Assembly (NCBI GenBank): GCA_027946365.1
Contig: JAPEUQ010000003.1
Coordinates: 2,542,001 to 2,606,000, forward strand
Source: Kalmusia sp. IMI 367209
Lineage: Eukaryota; Ascomycota; Dothideomycetes; Pleosporales; Didymosphaeriaceae
Direction of reading: 5' to 3'
DNA: 64,000 nt
Below the pieces are notes generated by a model. That model saw only the letters and a list, made by a program, of their open reading frames with translations, was not told the origin of the DNA and made no database searches. Positions 43,679-62,047 of this stretch are shown here, one piece after another. Position 1 is the stretch's first letter, and every line of letters begins with the position of its first letter. Both the position numbers and the translations under genes were made by a program.

Positions 43679-44929
43679 TTAGTGCGTACAATGCTCTTGA
43701 ATCTTGTCCATTAATGCTTCTGCTATTTCATGAGCGAAGCTTGTGTCGTTGATGTCTCGGACATCTTCCTTGACCTGTATGCCGCTGCCATCGAGGCTTT
43801 GCTTGACGGCGTTGAACAGAGCCTCATCGACCAATGCATCCGCAAATGGTCCTTCAGGCGTCGAAATCATACTAATACCTCCTCGAGGCAACCACACTTC
43901 GATGCTAGTCGGATCTAGGGCGTGCTGACGTAATTGAGAACCGATGAAATGTCCGACTTCTGTTGCCTCTTCCTCGGAAGTTCTCATCAAGGTGACAACT
44001 GGATTGTGCTCGTACAGCTTCCGTGACTTGTAGCGCTCTGGCACAGTATTCTTCGGTCCAAAGTTGGTCATGTCGGTTGCACCGACTGACACGATATTCG
44101 GTATGCCGGCTTTTGCTGCTGCTTCGAGACGATGCTCTCCGGCACTCATTACACCGCCTGTAACGAGGTCGCACACCTCTGTAGTGGTGAGATCTAGCAC
44201 AGCATCGAGTCCGCCTTCGCGGACCAGCCGCTCCATAGCTTTCCCTCCATGGCCGGTTGCGTGGAAGACGTAAGTCTCGACGTCATAATTCGATTCAAGG
44301 TGCTTGCGTATCGTGTCTACGGCTGGAGTCGTCACGCCGAACATGGTAATTCCGATTCTTTTTCTGGACGAAGAAACACTTCCTGAGCTCCGTGCAACAT
44401 ACGAACGAGCCATCCCTGCAATGGCCGCACCGGCATTGCTGAGCACATTGCGCAACACTTGATTGAGGCCGGCAATATCCACAACGGAGTACATCAGCGT
44501 GATATCCGTCTCCTCGACGATAGGTCCCGTATCGCCACTCGCAATCGTTGAGACGATCAATTTCGGAAAGCCAAAGGGAACTGCGTTCCTCATCACCTCC
44601 GCAGCGAGCGATGTACCTCCAGAGCCTCCAGCAGAGATGATGCCATGAATCGAACCGGCGTCGTATAGTTCCTTCACTAACTTGGTTGCGTAGCCTGCCA
44701 TCGTCTTGATGACCTCTCCACGCGGCAGCTCTTCAATATCCTGGCCTTCTCCATACTTCTGTACTACCTCCCTCTTCTCGAAATCAATGGCTGCGTGGGG
44801 GGTGTCATGCCTTCCGACATCGATGAGTGTGACCTTGACCTGCGGATCTGAAAGCTGGATCGTTTCGCGTAGGAACAGCAGCTCTTCTAGTTTGGTATCG
44901 CAAGTGCCCAAGAGAGCTACGGTAGCCAT
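43679..44929 (-). CDS. UPF0261 / Tm-1-like ATP-binding protein
   Basis: Single exon of 416 residues from the ATG at 44929. The sequence starts MATVALLGTCDTKLEELLFL, the characteristic start of UPF0261 (Tm-1-like) proteins. Further blocks are GIISAGGSGGTSLAAEVMRN, ASGDTGPIVEETDITLMYSV, IAGLNQVLRNVLSNAGAAIA, KRIGITMFGVTTPAVDTIRK, YVFHATGHGGKAMERLV, and GIPNIVSVGATDMTNFGPKN. In the tomato Tm-1 protein the same domain binds ATP and forms the N-terminal half of a fusion with a TIM-barrel. Function in fungi is unknown; bacterial relatives are small-molecule enzymes of unclear role. It is full length for the family. The partner TIM-barrel gene begins 161 bp away on the other strand, so the two genes probably work together. 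Confidence 0.92.
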   Translation of the reverse strand: MATVALLGTCDTKLEELLFLRETIQLSDPQVKVTLIDVGRHDTPHAAIDFEKREVVQKYGEGQDIEELPRGEVIKTMAGYATKLVKELYDAGSIHGIISAGGSGGTSLAAEVMRNAVPFGFPKLIVSTIASGDTGPIVEETDITLMYSVVDIAGLNQVLRNVLSNAGAAIAGMARSYVARSSGSVSSSRKRIGITMFGVTTPAVDTIRKHLESNYDVETYVFHATGHGGKAMERLVREGGLDAVLDLTTTEVCDLVTGGVMSAGEHRLEAAAKAGIPNIVSVGATDMTNFGPKNTVPERYKSRKLYEHNPVVTLMRTSEEEATEVGHFIGSQLRQHALDPTSIEVWLPRGGISMISTPEGPFADALVDEALFNAVKQSLDGSGIQVKEDVRDINDTSFAHEIAEALMDKIQEHCTH

Positions 44930-45090
44930 GATAATAAGCGGCGAGTTGTCATCACTCTTGATGGAGGGTGTGAATAGGGTGAATGTTATTTGCCCTCCAT
45001 TGTTGGGTCCCGCATTAGCCCCGCTCTGTTGACGTCAGCGCACCTGCCACGTTCGATAGCGACACGAAAGAAAACCTCCTCAACACCAGT
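44930..45090. promoter_or_regulatory. Bidirectional promoter, UPF0261 / TIM-barrel pair
   Basis: These 161 bp contain both leaders and must contain both promoters. Divergence at such short distance suggests shared regulation. No clear TATA box is seen. Confidence 0.55.
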
Positions 45091-45983
45091 ATGGCGCCTC
45101 CTAACAACAGAAAAGATATACTGCAGAAGCTGCGCAACTCTATCTCGGATGGCATTGTCATCGTTGGTGCTGGCGCCGGGATCGGCTTGTCGGCCAAATT
45201 CATCGAGCAGGGCGGCGGTGACCTGATCATCATCTACAATAGCGGACGATTCCGTATGGCTGGCAGGGGCTCATTAGCCGGACTGATGCCGTATGGAAAC
45301 GCGAACGACGTTGTCTTAGATATGGTGCGCTATATGCTAGGTAATGGTTAAATCGTATAACTAACGATTGATTGTAGGCGAACGAAGTTCTCCCTGTTGT
45401 GAAAAAGACCCCTGTTCTTGCAGGTGTATGCGCTACGGACCCTTTCCGCGACATAGATCGGTTCCTCAAACAGCTAAAAGACCTTGGTTTTGCTGGAATC
45501 CAAAACTTTCCAACGGTCGGTCTCATTGATGGCCAATTCCGTCAGAATCTCGAAGAGACGGGCATGGGGTACGACGCCGAGGTCGAGCTCGTTCAAAAAG
45601 CACGTGAGCTGGACCTAATTACAACACCATATGTCTTCAATGTTGCAGAAGCAAGAAAGATGAGTGAGGCCGGGGCCGACATAATCGTCGCCCATATGGG
45701 TCTCACTACGTCTGGGTCAATAGGTGCGACTAGCGGAAAGAGCTTGGATGACTGCGTAAAATTGATCCAAGAGATCCGTGATGAAGCAACGAAATCAAAC
45801 CCAGATGTCATTGTTCTGTGCCACGGCGGGCCAATCGCCGCGCCGGAAGATGCAGAGTACGTGATCTCACGCACGAAAGGCGTGCACGGCTTTTACGGTG
45901 CAAGCTCGATGGAACGGCTGCCGGTAGAAGAGGCAATCACCAATATCACCAAGACTTTCAAGAATTTGAAACCTAGCTCTTAA
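45091..45983 (+). CDS. TIM-barrel signal-transduction/PEP-hydrolase-like protein (Tm-1 C-terminal domain homologue)
   Basis: Two exons, 45091-45324 and 45378-45983, with a 53-nt intron (donor GTGCGC, branch AACTAACG, acceptor TTGTAG) give 279 residues. The sequence matches the TIM-barrel family that includes the C-terminal half of plant Tm-1 (PF09370): [115 protein letters not shown] and [20 protein letters not shown]. The downstream [20 protein letters not shown] is also typical. Choosing the apparently better GTAATG donor 16 nt downstream breaks the frame; the chosen junction reads [17 protein letters not shown], as in relatives. Enzyme activity is not established for the family. Pairing with the UPF0261 gene is discussed in the findings. 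Confidence 0.93.
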
Positions 45984-50468: not shown

Positions 50469-51907
50469 ATGAATCCATCTCGCCGCGGTCGCGGTACCAT
50501 TCTGCCGCGCCTATCAACGGGACACGGACTCGACTCGCCTATTGGTGCTGGCCAACGCTCTCGTCCATCCACGATCGATATATCTCGTTTCGAGGCTGCC
50601 GATGGCATTTCACACGTGGATGATCTCAGTAACGGCAGTGGTAAGTAGCATAGCCTTGTAGGCGCCTCAGAGAGCACGCTACTCACAGCTGAGTAGGTTT
50701 TACCTCTCCCAGCGACGAACGCGCGTTGACTCACCCGGTAATTGGCAGTGCACCACCAGGAAGTTCTGCCACTGGAATATCCCAGGGCTGCATGAGTACC
50801 TTGCAATTACCGGATACACAGACTACCAGCACGTCTCCCTTTATTGCTGCGCAGGGTTCGTTGAAGCGGCAACCATCCAATGATGACGGCAACAACGCTC
50901 AGTCTACTTTTGCTCGTTCCACCAAGAGGCAGAAGACTGAGTGGAAGATCCAGAAGAATTGGAACCCAGACTGTTGGTACAAGGCAGAAGCGACGTTCTC
51001 AGACAATACTATGAAGAATAAGGCTCTTAAAAATGGGATGTCAAAGTTTCTGGATGATGAAGGCATTGACCCCACCCAGTTCAAAAGTAGAGAAAGTCTC
51101 AAGGACAAGTGTAGGGAGGTCCACCAGATACTAATCGACATGAGACTGGCCGGAGAAGCCATATACCCTGGGGTACTCGCTGATAAATCTCCACCAGCTG
51201 GCTGGGGTCCATCTCCTGGTAGTCAGTCCAGACCCAGTGCTTCTCTGAGGAAGAGGGTTCGACGTGCTACTCGTGCTACGCCCGTGTCTGATACTCATTC
51301 TTCTCCTGACTTGCGCTCTGAGATAAAGGTCAGCGAAAGCACATACGACGGATCCGAAGCGAGTAGTGACACTGACGAATCCTTGTGTGATAGTCACGGA
51401 GCCCCGGCTGCTCAATGGCCGAATAAGCTGCCAGTCCTTGTCGCACGCCAGGATTCTGCAACTTTTCATAAAGCACGGGCAGACATCAGGAAGCTAAGGG
51501 AACAAGCCACTGTCGATATCCATAATGCTACTGTCGAGAAAACGGCCTACGTTTATACCATAATTGATGGCAGTAGCAGGACAAAGACCACTTTACCTTC
51601 ATGGGCGCTGTTCGATCACCACAATCGTCCACTGCTTAACATCAAGGCTCAGGCCCTTATCCGCCGCTCCGTTGGGTACTGGACCCAAGTCGAGAGCCTG
51701 CGACAGCACCATGGAAGAAATCCACCACTTAATAAGGCTGAAAAGGCGCGGTTCTCACAGAACCGATTAGATACTATCAATGCCTACCAGACAGCTCGCT
51801 CGGGTCTGGTGCATGAGCTGTCAATTGAGATTGATTGGAAGCGCAATTTGAGAGGCAGAGAGATGGCTCATAAGCTTGTGGCCGAGGAGTTTCCGCTGAA
51901 TGTTTAG
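50469..51907 (+). CDS. Orphan basic nuclear-type protein
   Basis: Two exons, 50469-50640 and 50697-51907, with a 56-nt intron (GTAAGT..GAGTAG), give 460 residues. I recognise no family. The N-terminus is Arg/Ser-rich and disordered (MNPSRRGRGTILPRLSTGHG). A nuclear-signal-like STKRQKTEWKIQKNW precedes a conserved-looking block, NPDCWYKAEATFSDNTMKNK and KFLDDEGIDPTQFKSRESLK, about residues 135-190, which could be a small globular DNA-binding or interaction module. A second basic patch (SLRKRVRRATRAT), an acidic middle (SDTDESLCDSHG) and a helical C-terminal part (HKARADIRKLREQATVDIHN) follow. The C-terminus could be a dimerisation helix. It is the plus-strand gene next to the convergent HeLo-GTPase gene, which suggests accessory content, but no role is shown. 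Confidence 0.7.
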
Positions 51908-52557: not shown

Positions 52558-54376
52558 TTATGTGTTTGCTTCTTCACGTGTTTCATTTACTATGGGTAGC
52601 CCAGGGCGTTCACTACGCCACGGCAGCCTGAAACTGCGAGACGGAGGCGAAGAGGCTGAAATGGCAGCTCGTATTGCCTGTGATCTTTAGAATAGCCCAT
52701 AATACTAGCTATGAGAAGTAAGCAACGTACGGATTCGAAGATGTCATCCACACAAGCACCAGTCTCTAGTTTGCATTGAATGTAAGTCGCAGCACCAATT
52801 TCCTTAGCGAGGTTGGTTCCATTGATAAAATCGGAATCCAGATATGTGTAGGAGCGATCTGGAGCTACGCCTACAAGAATGTGGCGAGCTTTAGGGCAGT
52901 ACGAGTCCACATAGACGGTCCATTTCTTTCGTACCTGATCATAGTCTGGTGATGCGCCGAGAGGGAAGCATATGATAACGACGTCTGCGCCTGCATAATA
53001 GCGAGCTTGTAGGTTTTCATAATCCTCGCATCCGCTTATGTCCCGCAGGTAAAGCCTAGTCTGTTGACCGTCGATCCTGATAAGAAGCTTAGCGATGAAG
53101 ACTGGACCCCTTGATGTGTAGTGGGTCCACTACAAATTAAGGAGGTAGTTTAGACATGCCTTATGTCATTTATACAATCGTTGAAAATGACCGGTGAATA
53201 ACTGGTAGTATAATATCCACGTGTAAATGTGGAAAGCAATTGTGTCTTGCGAGCTGATGCCTCGCCTACTACGACAAATCTGGTCCTAATAAGAGAACAT
53301 CCGTAAAACTGGCATGATCAGATCAAGGCTTACTTATAACTTTTCTTGACCCTTTGCTTGATAGCAACGGGAGCTTGTTGTCTCGTATTGACAGGGAATT
53401 CTGTTGTGCTCAACCGCCTACTCAGCCTTCTTGCAGCAGTAGAAACAAGCTCTTGTTGCATCTCATCCGAGAGAAGTCGCTTGCCGTTGGGCTCGCGAAC
53501 TGCTATTTCCTGTTCTATAGAGATAGGCCTCGACCCCCAAGACTCAGCAAAACTGCTGGTTCTCGAAAGGTGCGTCCTCGCTGTGTAGTATGACTCCAGA
53601 GTGGTGAAAGATCCTAGGTATCCGGTGTCCATAGAAGAGCGTATACTGGTCGTCCCCTGAGAGATTTGTTCTAGTCGCACACTTGCGGCGTCCGAAACTG
53701 CATCTTCCTCTCCCTCTTTTGCCATTTCAATTTCTTCTAGCTCTTCTACATCATCAATACATTCAATTTCATAATCTATGAAGATCTGCTGACGATGTTG
53801 AATTTCTGTTGCTTTGGTCAAGTTTTCCAGGTCGTCGATGAAATCCTTAAGGTGCTTGATGAGCTCTGCGAACTTTTCACGGTCATCAATAACCCATATT
53901 GCTACTGCTACTTTCGAGTTTGATGGGCTTTGCTGAGATCTCGATCGTCGTCTGAGGAGGCGAGTGAGGCTGCTTCTTCTTTCTAATTTGCCTCCTGAAA
54001 TTATTGAAGGAGAGTTCGTCATGATAGCGCTTTCGCCTTGCATTGCGTCGGTGGGTTCCGTGTATGGTGCTAGGCCATAGCGGTCTTTTAGTCGTTTTGC
54101 ATCGTTCAATAACAGGCTGATGCACTCTAGCGTCGACACCAACTGGCGATTTAGCTCCGGCTCATCTAATCGCGCATCGTACTGAGTTTCATCGATAAGA
54201 CCGCATGCACGACCCCAAGCACGAAGTCGAAGTTCTTGGTTGCTGAATTTCGTTTCGAATATTTTGTAGTCTTTGTCGAAAGCGCGGCCCTTCTGGACAA
54301 GCCTGAAGGCGCTGGTGCACGCACTAAAAAGCCCGGCTAATCCAGCAATACCAACCACGAGGCTAGCTGCTTCCAT
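52558..54376 (-). CDS. HeLo domain fused to a degenerate Rho-family GTPase
   Basis: Four exons on the minus strand: 54376-53334, 53285-53176, 53101-52731 and 52677-52558; introns of 48, 74 and 53 nt, all phase-consistent, give 547 residues. An upstream in-frame ATG at 54412 would add MLLLFAFLLLPD. Residues 1-215 are a HeLo domain: MEAASLVVGIAGLAGLFSAC, FETKFSNQELRLRAWGRACG and WVIDDREKFAELIKHLKDFI match the HET-S/prion-inhibition type. Residues about 220-345 are a Ser-rich linker. From 348 on a Rho-like fold follows: TRFVVVGEASARKTQLLSTF (P-loop), RLYLRDISGCEDYENL (switch II), GADVVIICFPL, ARHILVGVAPDRS, and DDIFESAIRAAIS. The G3 Gln is Cys, the G4 TKxD is VAPD, the P-loop Gly before Lys is Arg, and there is no CAAX box. 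HeLo domains cause membrane-targeted cell death in fungal non-self recognition. I infer a death effector with a pseudo-GTPase control module. Confidence 0.82.
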
Positions 54377-59788: not shown

Positions 59789-60967
59789 ATGAAGCAGACA
59801 CAGATCTGGACAATCACGATGCTGTCCGCCAAGCCTTCTCAAATGTCATCCGAAAGGTTCCTACATCCACATGGCACGACTAGATCGAATGAGAAAGTCT
59901 CCAGCGCTACTAGCTCCCGCGAAAAGCTACTCGGCTCATCCAGCTTTGTTGACATACCACTGCAAACTTTCAGCGCGACCTCTTCATCAACAAAGCTTGT
60001 CTTCACAGACTGGCACGGGCAGCCCTCGAAATCGAGAAAGCGGCCTCCTCACCAAATCGATGAACGCGTCCTCGCTCTCTCGGTAACGATAACCCTTGCT
60101 CTTTTAGTCCTTATAGGCGTGCCGCTCAGCGCTATCCTGCCACAAAAATACGTCGTCCAGCTGCCGATCAACATCCTTGTTCCATTCTATGTGTACCCAG
60201 ATCCGGGTGCGTTTGATAGACTGTATAGTGCGTAAGTATTTGCACTTTCTGCCGGTCTAAATACAATAGCCCGCGCGTGCTAACGGCATTCGAACAGCTT
60301 CATGAAGCATCCCGACTTAAATTTCACCGTAATTCTGTCTATCAACCACGGTCCCACCACCAACGCGTGGCCCTCGGGGGTCTATATCACTCCTATCAAG
60401 AGACTCAGCACACTTCCTAATGTCCAGACGATTGGCTACATCGACACCGCTTACGGCGCGCGCGACGTTGAGATAGTACGCAAGGAGATCGCGACATACG
60501 CAGGTTGGAACAATTCCAATATCGCCATCTCCGGTATCTTCTTTGACCACACACCAACGGAAGATGTCGACGATGCACGCGCTTATCTGAAGAATGTAAG
60601 CGCGACAGTGAGGCACTCGGATGGGTTCTTAGACCCGCGGATGGTGATTCATAATGCAGGCAGATTGCCTGATGTAAATATGGCGAGCTATCGTGCCGAT
60701 GTGACGGTGGTATTTGAGGGTGAGTATAAGGACGTGCCAAAGAGGGGAGAGCTGAGGGGAAAGCTGCGAGACTTGCATGGTCGACGGGAGGATTACGCTG
60801 AGTTGGTGCATTCGGTACCACAGAATGTAAGTCGAGGCGGGATTAGGAACATCATCAATGCAGCTAGAAGAAATGTTGGCTGGCTGTTTGTCACAAATCG
60901 TACGGGCGACGATAGGTACGAAGGGTACAGCGATCGATTAGAGGAATTTTTGGATTTGGCGTGGTAG
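59789..60967 (+). CDS. Membrane-anchored spherulin-4 family protein (GH135-like)
   Basis: Two exons, 59789-60231 and 60298-60967, with a 66-nt intron, give 370 residues; the ATGs at 59819 and 59843 are alternatives. A Ser-rich cytosolic N-terminus of about 95 residues is followed by one membrane span (VLALSVTITLALLVLIGVPL) and then the spherulin-4 domain: INILVPFYVYPDPGAFDRLY, LNFTVILSINHGPTTNAWPS, TIGYIDTAYGARDVEIVRKE, IAISGIFFDHTPTEDVDDAR, and TVVFEGEYKDVPK. This type II topology is as in Aspergillus Sph3, a GH135 hydrolase acting on galactosaminogalactan. The acidic pair after GIFF is Asp-His here, while the next gene has Asp-Glu, so activity is uncertain. Tandem with the next gene (212 bp apart), same strand. 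Confidence 0.85.
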
Positions 60968-61130
60968 AACCGCACACAAATATATAAGCAATAGTTCTCA
61001 AATCTTATTACACTACAAGTGTCTGTTGGCAAGAAGGCGGCAGGTGTTGTCAAAATTTATGCTAGCGGTTTTAGTTGGAAGAAACGTGGCTATTCATTTA
61101 GTAGTCAGCTATAACAGGGATGTCGGCAAA

Positions 61131-61139
61131 TATATAAAA
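61131..61139 (+). promoter_or_regulatory. TATA-like box of the second spherulin-4 gene
   Basis: TATATAAAA lies about 41 bp before the ATG at 61180. It is unusually near the start and would imply a short leader. Confidence 0.35.
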
Positions 61140-61179
61140 ACACTCACGATCCCGTATTTGCTATCCAGCACTAGTCAGC

Positions 61180-62047
61180 ATGTCCGCTCCAGCTCCAAAA
61201 CTGAAAGTACTCCTGCCTTTATATATTTACCCTGACGCAGGTGCTTGGGAACCCCTCTTCGAAGCGTACCGTTTCCGTTCCCATGATCTTTCTGATCCCC
61301 ACTAATATGTCTAGCATTGTATCAAACCCAACGCTCGACTTTATCGTGATCATAAATCCGCATAATGGTCCAGGATCTGAGCCTTGGTGGCCAAACATCG
61401 ACTATGTTCGCGAGATACCAAGATTCAACGCTCAGCCTAATGTGCGAATAGTGGGCTACGTACATACGATATACTGCAAACGGCCAGTTGAGCAACTCTT
61501 CGCGGATATCGATCGATATGCGAGCTGGTCAAGGGACGATAGCCTTCCAGGCCTAAGCCTGGGTGGAATATTCTTTGATGAAACGCCTGATGTGTTTTCG
61601 GAAGAGTCGAAGGAGTACCTAGATGTCATTACGCAGAAAGTAAAAGAAACCGATGGATTGGTTGGCGAGAGATTGGTAATGGTTTGATTCCAATATACAA
61701 GGTTTCCTTTAGCTAAAATCCGACTCTAGGTCATTCATAACCCGGGAACATCGATTGATCACCGGCTTGCAAGCCCAGGTTTAGATATTGCAACTATCGC
61801 AGAATTGGCATACTCTGATTTCCGAACCGCGGAATGTCAAAAATGGCTTGCAACTTCGCTTTTTGATAGTAGTAAAGCGAGCTACATGATACATGCGGTA
61901 CCAGAAGAAGATACCGAAGACTTTGTGCGGACTCTGAGAGGAATGGCGGGGTACGTCTTTGTAACAGATCTGGAAGCAAATGTCTATCATAGTTTTGGCT
62001 CGAGTTGGAAAAGGTTCATAGCTACTATGGTGAAATTGGCAGCTTAG
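61180..62047 (+). CDS. Spherulin-4 family protein (GH135-like), no signal peptide
   Basis: Three exons, 61180-61265, 61315-61675 and 61730-62047, with introns of 49 and 54 nt, give 254 residues. It starts MSAPAPKLKVLLPLYIYPDA at once in the domain, without signal peptide or membrane span. Blocks are LDFIVIINPHNGPGSEPWWP, VRIVGYVHTIYCKRPVEQLF, LSLGGIFFDETPDVFSEESK, VIHNPGTSID, and DIATIAELAYSDFR. The Asp-Glu pair in GIFFDE is present, as is a later Glu in the position of the third acid. The second donor GTAATG at 61676 restores the VIHN block as in the neighbour (MVIHNAGR); GTTTGA at 61682 is an alternative. Most likely a cytosolic paralogue born by duplication; the substrate is unknown. Confidence 0.85.

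What the first reader, a model, noticed from the sequence alone, without database searches (positions are those of the whole stretch)
52558..54376. HeLo domain fused in one gene to a Rho-type small GTPase
Three phase-consistent introns connect a HET-S-type HeLo domain (residues 1-215) to a full-length Rho-like GTPase (348-547). HeLo domains are known as N-terminal cell-death effectors of fungal incompatibility and NLR-like proteins, coupled to NACHT, prion-forming or kinase parts. I know of no described HeLo with a Rho fold. The likely role is regulated cell death or sensing of attack on Rho signalling.
Basis: partly seen in the sequence, partly recalled or inferred. Interest (0 to 1): 0.9.

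Follow-up and report, generated by a model that had tools for sequence, protein, structure and literature searches.

The report
Fungal death domain fused to pseudo-GTPase
A fungal gene joins a cell-death domain of the membrane-attacking kind to a Rho GTPase whose nucleotide-binding site looks damaged, and the same pairing occurs in two classes of fungi, which suggests a cell-death switch worked by a dead GTPase.

Summary
The fusion is real. The minus-strand gene 54376-52558 (very likely Kalmusia sp. IMI 367209) encodes, in my corrected model, 542 aa: a HeLo domain (PF14479, 153 bits) and a Rho-type G domain (PF00071, 79 bits). Two searches found 14 proteins with both domains, this gene's deposited version included, in Dothideomycetes and Sordariomycetes. 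All three then share column and phase with the introns of this genome's cdc42. The 'GTPase' looks like a pseudo-GTPase: both later P-loop glycines are replaced in 13 of 13 readable HeLo-Rho rows and none ends in CAAX, though the P-loop lysine is mostly kept. HeLo is the better-conserved half in 12 of 12 comparisons. Most likely it works like MLKL: a HeLo membrane executioner controlled by a nucleotide-independent Rho-fold sensor. Anatomy and conservation are shown; function is inferred. Five full-text searches found no description of the pair. New variant of a known kind.

The parts
52558..54376 (-). HeLo-Rho fusion gene, start codon to stop codon, 542 aa in the corrected model
   Evidence: relatives
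53334..54376 (-). Exon 1: HeLo domain plus linker up to YK, where the Rho fold begins
   Evidence: most relatives start at the matching Met; the deposited model P0001 starts 12 residues upstream
53732..54361 (-). HeLo domain, residues 6-215 (PF14479, 153 bits, cut-off 23.2)
   Evidence: HET-S/HET-s crystal structures 2wvo, 2wvn, 2wvq matched at 2e-17 to 8e-15
53334..53731 (-). Ser/Arg-rich linker, residues 216-346; holds VSDAAS and, in 10 of 10 Dothideomycete rows read, a shared (L/M)(E/D/Q)SYxTAR segment
   Evidence: read by eye; low confidence in the model of the Zopfia relative
53280..53333 (-). Intron 1, GT-AG, phase 2, 54 nt; same column and phase as cdc42 intron 1; if retained, stop TAA follows at once
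53160..53279 (-). Exon 2, 120 nt: degenerate P-loop and switch I; frame-neutral if skipped
53243..53266 (-). P-loop GEASARKT; canonical here GDGA(C/V)GKT, both later glycines replaced
53077..53159 (-). Intron 2, GC-AG (GCATGT...TATCAG), phase 2, 83 nt; same column and phase as cdc42 intron 2
52731..53076 (-). Exon 3: switch II region (DISGCEDYE) to IFES
52678..52730 (-). Intron 3, GT-AG, phase 0, 53 nt; same column and phase as cdc42 intron 3
52558..52677 (-). Exon 4: last helix of the Rho fold and tail, no CAAX, stop TAA
52642..53336 (-). Rho-type pseudo-GTPase domain, residues about 347-515 (introns included)

Best explanation
A conserved fungal cell-death protein. The N-terminal HeLo domain is the executioner: its hydrophobic first helix enters the membrane once released. 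The C-terminal domain is a pseudo-GTPase, a Rho fold that has lost normal nucleotide handling. It serves as a protein-binding sensor or clamp that keeps HeLo quiet until a partner (Rho regulator, altered Rho, or foreign protein) binds or changes it. This is the logic of MLKL (four-helix killer plus pseudokinase) with a pseudo-GTPase in the regulator's place. Shown: domain pair, gene model by homology, conservation, changed active site, no prenylation signal. Inferred from HET-S and MLKL: membrane killing by HeLo. Inferred without direct evidence: control by the Rho fold, and its ligand.
For: PF14479 and PF00071 far over their cut-offs in one protein. Twelve of 32 hits with both domains, 14 of 49 (both searches scored only about 8000 candidates). 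Members lie in Pleosporales, Zopfiaceae, Mytilinidiales, Sordariales and Lulworthiales (lineages of five species looked up). HeLo aligns with HET-S/HET-s structures at 2e-17. The N-terminal 19-residue hydropathy maximum is 1.67-1.99 in 14 of 14 fusions, and the residue aligned with HET-S H33 is never Pro in 14 of 14 (HET-S numbering counted by hand on the alignment); H33P converts HET-S to the non-toxic type (PMC3531502, passages). The two later P-loop glycines are lost in 13 of 13 HeLo-Rho rows and kept in 4 of 4 canonical Rho proteins of this genome; no fusion row ends in CAAX, against 3 of 3 canonical rows with a complete end. In human RhoA the G17V change at the second of these places impairs GTP binding and sequesters GEFs (PMC6678807, passages). 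The HeLo part is more conserved than the Rho part in 12 of 12 comparisons.
Against: No toxicity, expression or binding data. The position aligned with HET-S E86 is Cys in 14 of 14 fusions (E86K makes HET-S non-toxic), and the position aligned with HET-S A23 is acidic in 3 of 14, as in non-toxic HET-s with D23. The model of the Zopfia relative has low confidence in HeLo (pLDDT 30-56 per 10-residue block), so no HeLo-Rho interface can be read from it. The P-loop lysine is kept in 11 of 13 fusions, the following Thr in 13 of 13 and the switch II DxxG in 11 of 13, so some nucleotide or phosphate binding is not excluded. The guanine motif is a weak argument: this genome's own Cdc42 also lacks its lysine (TQVD).
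Confidence: 0.55

Rival explanations
1. Integrated decoy: the Rho fold copies a real Rho so that a toxin or effector aimed at Rho proteins hits it, and the hit releases HeLo. A one-protein fungal counterpart of pyrin-type guarding of Rho. (A special case of the best explanation.)
For: The Rho half diverges more than HeLo and its P-loop is damaged. Fungal STAND proteins carry HeLo as N-terminal effector in front of a receptor part (PMC3321046, passages). In mammals pyrin and NLRP3 detect changes in Rho activity made by bacterial effectors (PMC11781737, passages). In the Sordariomycete-type rows the switch I Thr is kept (P0018, P0022, P0033, P0035: 4 of 4) and the switch II Gln in 3 of 4.
Against: In this protein the residues that known Rho-modifying toxins hit (recalled) are gone: switch I Thr is V, switch II Gln is C, the Asn after switch I is D. 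Over 13 HeLo-Rho rows Thr is replaced in 8, Gln in 8, Asn in 11. No family member has been seen responding to anything.
Confidence: 0.3
2. Not a death protein: HeLo is a membrane anchor that replaces the lost prenyl group, and the pseudo-Rho is a constitutive GEF trap or scaffold that damps Cdc42/Rho signalling in polarity or wall synthesis.
For: No CAAX in any of the 13 rows. RhoA G17V is dominant negative through GEF sequestration. Membrane binding by HeLo is separable from leakage in HET-S.
Against: Switch I and II vary strongly across the family, which is not what a conserved GEF interface should show. The HeLo proteins described in the passages read act in cell death.
Confidence: 0.15
3. 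Active but atypical GTPase switch: the nucleotide state of the Rho part turns HeLo on or off despite the altered P-loop.
For: P-loop Lys kept in 11 of 13 HeLo-Rho rows and 2 of 2 Fusarium rows, P-loop Thr in 13 of 13 HeLo-Rho rows, DxxG in 11 of 13. RhoA C16R, next to G17, is fast cycling rather than dead.
Against: Both later P-loop glycines lost in 13 of 13 fusions and in 2 of 2 Fusarium proteins. K and D of the guanine motif kept together in 1 of 15 rows (3 of 4 canonical rows), C-S of the last loop in 2 of 15 (4 of 4 canonical).
Confidence: 0.12
4. Two neighbouring genes, or an artefact of splicing choices: HeLo ends at TAA 53330 and the Rho part is separate or dead.
For: Exon 1 reads into an immediate TAA; 8 of 20 short HeLo-only hits end at that place. 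Exon 2 is missing from the deposited models P0001 and P0007.
Against: The frame of exon 2 has no ATG ahead of FVVVGE. P0033 (source tag lgn, no name given) has both domains in one predicted protein. All three introns coincide with cdc42 introns. Twelve further deposited proteins carry both domains.
Confidence: 0.03

Closest known systems
HET-S / HET-s (Podospora anserina) and other HeLo effectors
   Same: HeLo domain over its whole length, hydrophobic N-terminal helix, N-terminal position
   Different: C-terminal part is a Rho fold, not an amyloid prion-forming region; no NACHT or NB-ARC match within the 64 kb window, whereas HeLo gene L005 of this genome has one 1.2 kb away and L006 a sub-threshold one; E86 equivalent is Cys
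MLKL (metazoan necroptosis)
   Same: In logic: four-helix death domain related to HeLo (PMC10197012, passages) fused to a catalytically dead regulator domain
   Different: Regulator is a pseudokinase there, a pseudo-GTPase here; no sequence test against MLKL was made
Fungal NLRs with HeLo N-terminus
   Same: HeLo as N-terminal effector joined to a nucleotide-binding fold (HeLo with NACHT/WD or NB-ARC/TPR; PMC3321046, passages)
   Different: Small Rho-type domain instead of a STAND NTPase; no repeat domain found by Pfam
Cdc42 / Rho2 of the same genome
   Same: Rho fold; the three introns match those of cdc42 in column and phase; best own-genome protein match outside the gene is Rho2, 77.9 bits, then Cdc42, 50.6 bits
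   Different: P-loop glycines, C-S of the last loop and CAAX lost
RhoBTB (the label on the deposited proteins P0001 and P0007)
   Same: Atypical Rho domain in a larger protein (recalled)
   Different: No BTB domain found by Pfam; HeLo at the N-terminus
Fusarium proteins P0049, P0050
   Same: About 370 residues followed by a Rho domain with damaged P-loop (MKN in place of GKT)
   Different: N-terminal part is not PF14479; only a sub-threshold PigL_N match, 8.5 bits against a cut-off of 27.2

Membership tests
HeLo domain (PF14479) | Profile match over full length above the curated cut-off | tested here: met
   153 bits, positions 2-204 of 205
HeLo domain (PF14479) | Hydrophobic N-terminal helix that can enter a membrane | tested here: met
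   Best 19-residue Kyte-Doolittle mean 1.90 at residue 6; hydropathy only, no membrane-helix predictor
HeLo domain (PF14479) | Toxic-form residues of HET-S (not Pro33, E86, A23) | tested here: inconclusive
   Ala at the H33 place, Cys at the E86 place, Ser at the A23 place
HeLo domain (PF14479) | Kills cells or leaks membranes | not testable with these tools
   Needs expression
HET-S/NWD2-type amyloid-controlled effector | C-terminal amyloid repeats | tested here: inconclusive
   Rho domain found at the C-terminus instead; linker only read by eye for repeats
HET-S/NWD2-type amyloid-controlled effector | Adjacent NLR gene | tested here: not met
   0 of 56 NACHT and 0 of 23 NB-ARC matches of the genome lie in the window; divergent NLRs may be missed
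Fungal NLR | NACHT or NB-ARC domain | tested here: not met
   Pfam finds HeLo, Ras, Roc and a sub-threshold Arf only
Rho GTPase | Ras-superfamily G domain closest to Rho | tested here: met
   PF00071 79 bits; best solved relatives Rnd3/RhoE, Rac-like, Rho1, RhoA; fold of the Zopfia relative best matched by Rac/Rho
Rho GTPase | P-loop GxxxxGK[ST] | tested here: not met
   GEASARKT; the Gly before Lys lost in 13 of 13 HeLo-Rho rows, kept in 4 of 4 canonical rows
Rho GTPase | Guanine motif (T/N)KxD and CSA loop | tested here: not met
   VAPD and QCKLE here; of the 4 canonical rows 3 have K and D (own Cdc42 has TQVD) and 4 have CS
Rho GTPase | C-terminal CAAX | tested here: not met
   Ends REEANT; 0 of 13 fusion rows have CAAX, though some models may be cut short
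RhoBTB | BTB domain | tested here: not met
   None in this protein or in P0001, P0007

The most novel reading that the evidence does not exclude
A fungal immune receptor class without an NLR: a HeLo killer gated by a dead Rho that acts as built-in bait or sensor for attack on, or mismatch in, Rho/Cdc42 signalling. It arose by exon shuffling through an ancestral Rho/Cdc42 intron, perhaps more than once (HeLo-Rho in two classes; another N-terminal part plus dead Rho in Fusarium).
Probability: 0.3. Interest if true: 0.92.

Novelty: new variant of a known kind. Interest (0 to 1): 0.73.

Why it matters
HeLo domains are known under amyloid or NLR control. A dead-looking Rho fold as partner, found in two fungal classes with the same P-loop glycines lost in every row read, points to a further way of gating membrane-disrupting cell death, parallel to the pseudokinase of MLKL. 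It gives a concrete set of proteins in which to test whether fungi guard Rho signalling as animals do. It also shows that deposited models (two of them labelled Rho-BTB, with exon 2 missing) hide the family.

Tried and rejected
Two other GT-donor choices for intron 2 gave stops. RhoBTB label: rejected, no BTB. Decaying pseudogene: rejected, HeLo well conserved and both domains present in 14 proteins. HeLo paralogue with a Rho part elsewhere in the genome: none seen; 9 matches to the Rho part, 3 of them pieces of this gene, the other 6 not at any of the 11 HeLo places. Parent of the Rho half: unresolved. Introns say cdc42; protein similarity says Rho2 first; by eye Rho2 has an acceptor one codon before its KLVIIG. 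The tree has long branches, and the canonical Rho proteins form a clade of their own (97/98) apart from the fusions. AlphaFold of the Fusarium pair: useless, mean pLDDT 31.6. AlphaFold of the Zopfia relative: good only for the Rho part. Search with the Rho part of P0003 among proteins of 0.55-1.75 times its length: 4 hits, all HeLo-Rho proteins; it missed 10 of the 14 known fusions, so it does not show that no other partner exists. Repeats around the gene: nothing of note.

Literature: (HeLo or prion-inhibition together with Rho, Ras or small GTPase) gave 0, 0, 1, 1 and 0 papers; both papers were seen by passages and do not describe the pair. Searches were seen as listings, and one paper each by passages. 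Of the 30 papers listed, seven were opened, by passages only. Supplements, subscription papers and preprints were not searched.

Chosen rows: the motif tables use 13 HeLo-Rho rows: this gene in the corrected model plus 12 of 13 others; P0007 was left out because its model skips exon 2. The two Fusarium proteins are counted apart unless 15 is given. The domain-identity comparison uses the same 12 others.

Full report
What is there. On the minus strand at 54376-52558 an open frame of exon 1 (54376-53334) continues through three short introns. The corrected protein matches HeLo (PF14479; residues 6-215, 153 bits, cut-off 23.2) and Ras (PF00071; 348-508, 79 bits, cut-off 21.6). By sequence the HeLo half finds the HET-S/HET-s structures (2wvo, 2wvn, 2wvq; E 2e-17 to 8e-15). 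The contig of the window (C23, 3,992,429 bases) has the same length as the contig of P0001, a Kalmusia sp. IMI 367209 protein that agrees with this gene apart from its start and splicing, so the window very likely comes from that fungus (Didymosphaeriaceae, Pleosporales).

Corrected gene model. Moving the intron 1 acceptor from 53286 to 53280 and taking a GC-AG intron 53159-53077 gives YKFVVVGE and NDCINDIRIDGQ, 542 aa against 543 in Zopfia. A further check: exact threading puts the three introns of the own cdc42 gene at I|KCVVVGDG (phase 2), V|MIGDEP (phase 2) and FDE|AIVAAL (phase 0); the corrected gene has Y|KFVVVGE (2), I|RIDGQQ (2) and FES|AIRAAI (0). In the alignment these are the same columns (6, 61, 212), three of three. 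The introns found in Rho1, Rac (first 160 residues) and Rho2 (from KLVIIG on) lie elsewhere, though by eye Rho2 has an acceptor one codon before KLVIIG. The deposited model P0001 starts 12 residues upstream, lacks exon 2 and has another C-terminus; P0007 also lacks exon 2. Exon 2 is 120 nt and frame-neutral, so skipping is possible, but a donor missed by annotation is the simpler reading here; the donor in Didymosphaeria was not seen.

Not a lone oddity. A search of 5.8 billion proteins gave 32 hits, 12 with both domains; a profile search gave 49, of which 14 have both; each scored only about 8000 candidates. Besides this gene they come from Zopfia, Lentithecium, Clohesyomyces (two), Lophiostoma, Bimuria, Didymosphaeria, Mytilinidion, Lophium, Naviculisporaceae sp., Zalerion, Immersiella and one unnamed source. 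Lineages looked up: Dothideomycetes for Kalmusia, Zopfia and Mytilinidion, Sordariomycetes for Zalerion and Immersiella. Other hits are HeLo proteins without Rho: 20 are under 400 aa, 8 of which end in YK or LK where intron 1 begins, and longer ones such as P0026 and P0027 have another C-terminal part. In this genome the fusion is the only one seen: of 11 HeLo matches and 9 matches to the Rho part, only this gene has both.

The GTPase looks dead, with reservations. Aligned with the genome's own Cdc42, Rho1, Rho2 and Rac, the P-loop glycine before the lysine is replaced in 13 of 13 HeLo-Rho rows (7 R, 3 H, 1 Y, 1 Q, 1 D), and so is the glycine three places earlier; both are kept in 4 of 4 canonical rows. 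Two Fusarium proteins with another N-terminus have M and D there. K and D of the guanine motif are kept together in 1 of 15 rows, but only in 3 of 4 canonical rows (own Cdc42 has TQVD). The C-S of the last loop is kept in 2 of 15 rows and 4 of 4 canonical rows; no fusion or Fusarium row ends in CAAX. Against a dead enzyme: the P-loop lysine stays in 11 of 13 fusions, the next Thr in 13 of 13, and DxxG in 11 of 13, so residual binding is not excluded. In human RhoA, G17V at the glycine before the lysine impairs GTP binding and sequesters GEFs, while C16R cycles fast (PMC6678807, passages). The model of the Zopfia relative has a confident Rho fold (15 of 17 ten-residue blocks from 341 to 510 at pLDDT 83 or more) but an uncertain HeLo part (30-56).

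The HeLo half looks usable but is not proven toxic. The first helix is strongly hydrophobic in 14 of 14 fusions and the H33-equivalent is never proline, but the E86-equivalent is Cys in 14 of 14 and three rows have an acidic residue at the A23 place (HET-S numbers counted by hand). In HET-S the released N-terminal segment of about 34 residues goes to the membrane, and H33P or E86K give the non-toxic type (PMC3531502, passages). HeLo identity to this protein exceeds Rho identity in 12 of 12 relatives compared (44-86% against 28-81%).

Mechanism. The best reading is a membrane executioner gated by a nucleotide-independent Rho fold, as MLKL is gated by a pseudokinase; fungal reviews relate HeLo to the MLKL four-helix bundle (PMC10197012 and PMC12881547, passages). 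What the Rho fold senses is open: Rho regulators, an altered Rho, a foreign protein or an allele of itself. Guarding of Rho exists in mammals through pyrin and NLRP3 (PMC11781737, passages). In this protein the residues hit by Rho-modifying toxins (recalled) are not kept; over the family switch I Thr is replaced in 8 of 13 rows, switch II Gln in 8 of 13 and the Asn after switch I in 11 of 13, while the Sordariomycete-type rows keep the Thr in 4 of 4. The simplest decoy version is thus weak for the window's branch and less so for the other. No NACHT (56 matches) or NB-ARC (23) match lies in the window, so the usual HeLo-beside-NLR arrangement is not seen, while HeLo genes L005 and L006 have NACHT matches 1.2-1.3 kb away (the L006 one is under the cut-off).

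Novelty. Searches found no paper that describes a HeLo-Rho fusion. The main texts of PMC3321046, PMC12881547, PMC10197012, PMC9815663 and PMC4986451 hold 'HeLo' but not 'GTPase' (term counts and passages). Protein databases already hold the pair as automatic domain labels. I therefore call it a new variant of a known kind: a HeLo cell-death protein with a new kind of control domain.

Noticed in passing
P0049 and P0050 (Fusarium), residues about 369-566: A second kind of fusion: unassigned N-terminal part (weak PigL_N match, 8.5 bits, under the cut-off) plus a Rho domain with M at the P-loop Gly and N at the P-loop Thr; possibly an independent dead-Rho fusion.
   Followed up: partly
window 53160-53279: Exon 2 (P-loop and switch I) is 120 nt, frame-neutral, and absent from the deposited models of Kalmusia (P0001) and Didymosphaeria (P0007); either an unusual donor missed by annotation or a real cassette exon.
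   Followed up: partly
linker, residues about 255-275 of the fusion: Shared segment (L/M)(E/D/Q)SYxTAR in an otherwise variable, low-confidence linker of the 10 Dothideomycete rows read; possible interaction motif.
   Followed up: no
L005 (G000:C25:3002041-3005604) and L006 (G000:C7:387935-391498): HeLo genes with NACHT matches 1.2-1.3 kb away in divergent orientation, like HET-S/NWD2 pairs; the L006 NACHT match is under the cut-off.
   Followed up: partly
L001 (G000:C1:150281-153865): HeLo ORF with an N/G-rich tail (GSHNTGVQIGHNSG) and, on the other strand, frames reading AGARNQGLQIGDNTG near what looks like an NLR; a likely amyloid-signalling pair, read by eye only, and not among the NACHT or NB-ARC matches.
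   Followed up: no
window 43682-45980: Divergent pair of UPF0261 and PEP_hydrolase-like ORFs.
   Followed up: no
window 60284-61684: Two tandem Spherulin4 ORFs on the plus strand.
   Followed up: no
window 50693-51904: 404-aa open frame next to the fusion gene with no Pfam match.
   Followed up: no
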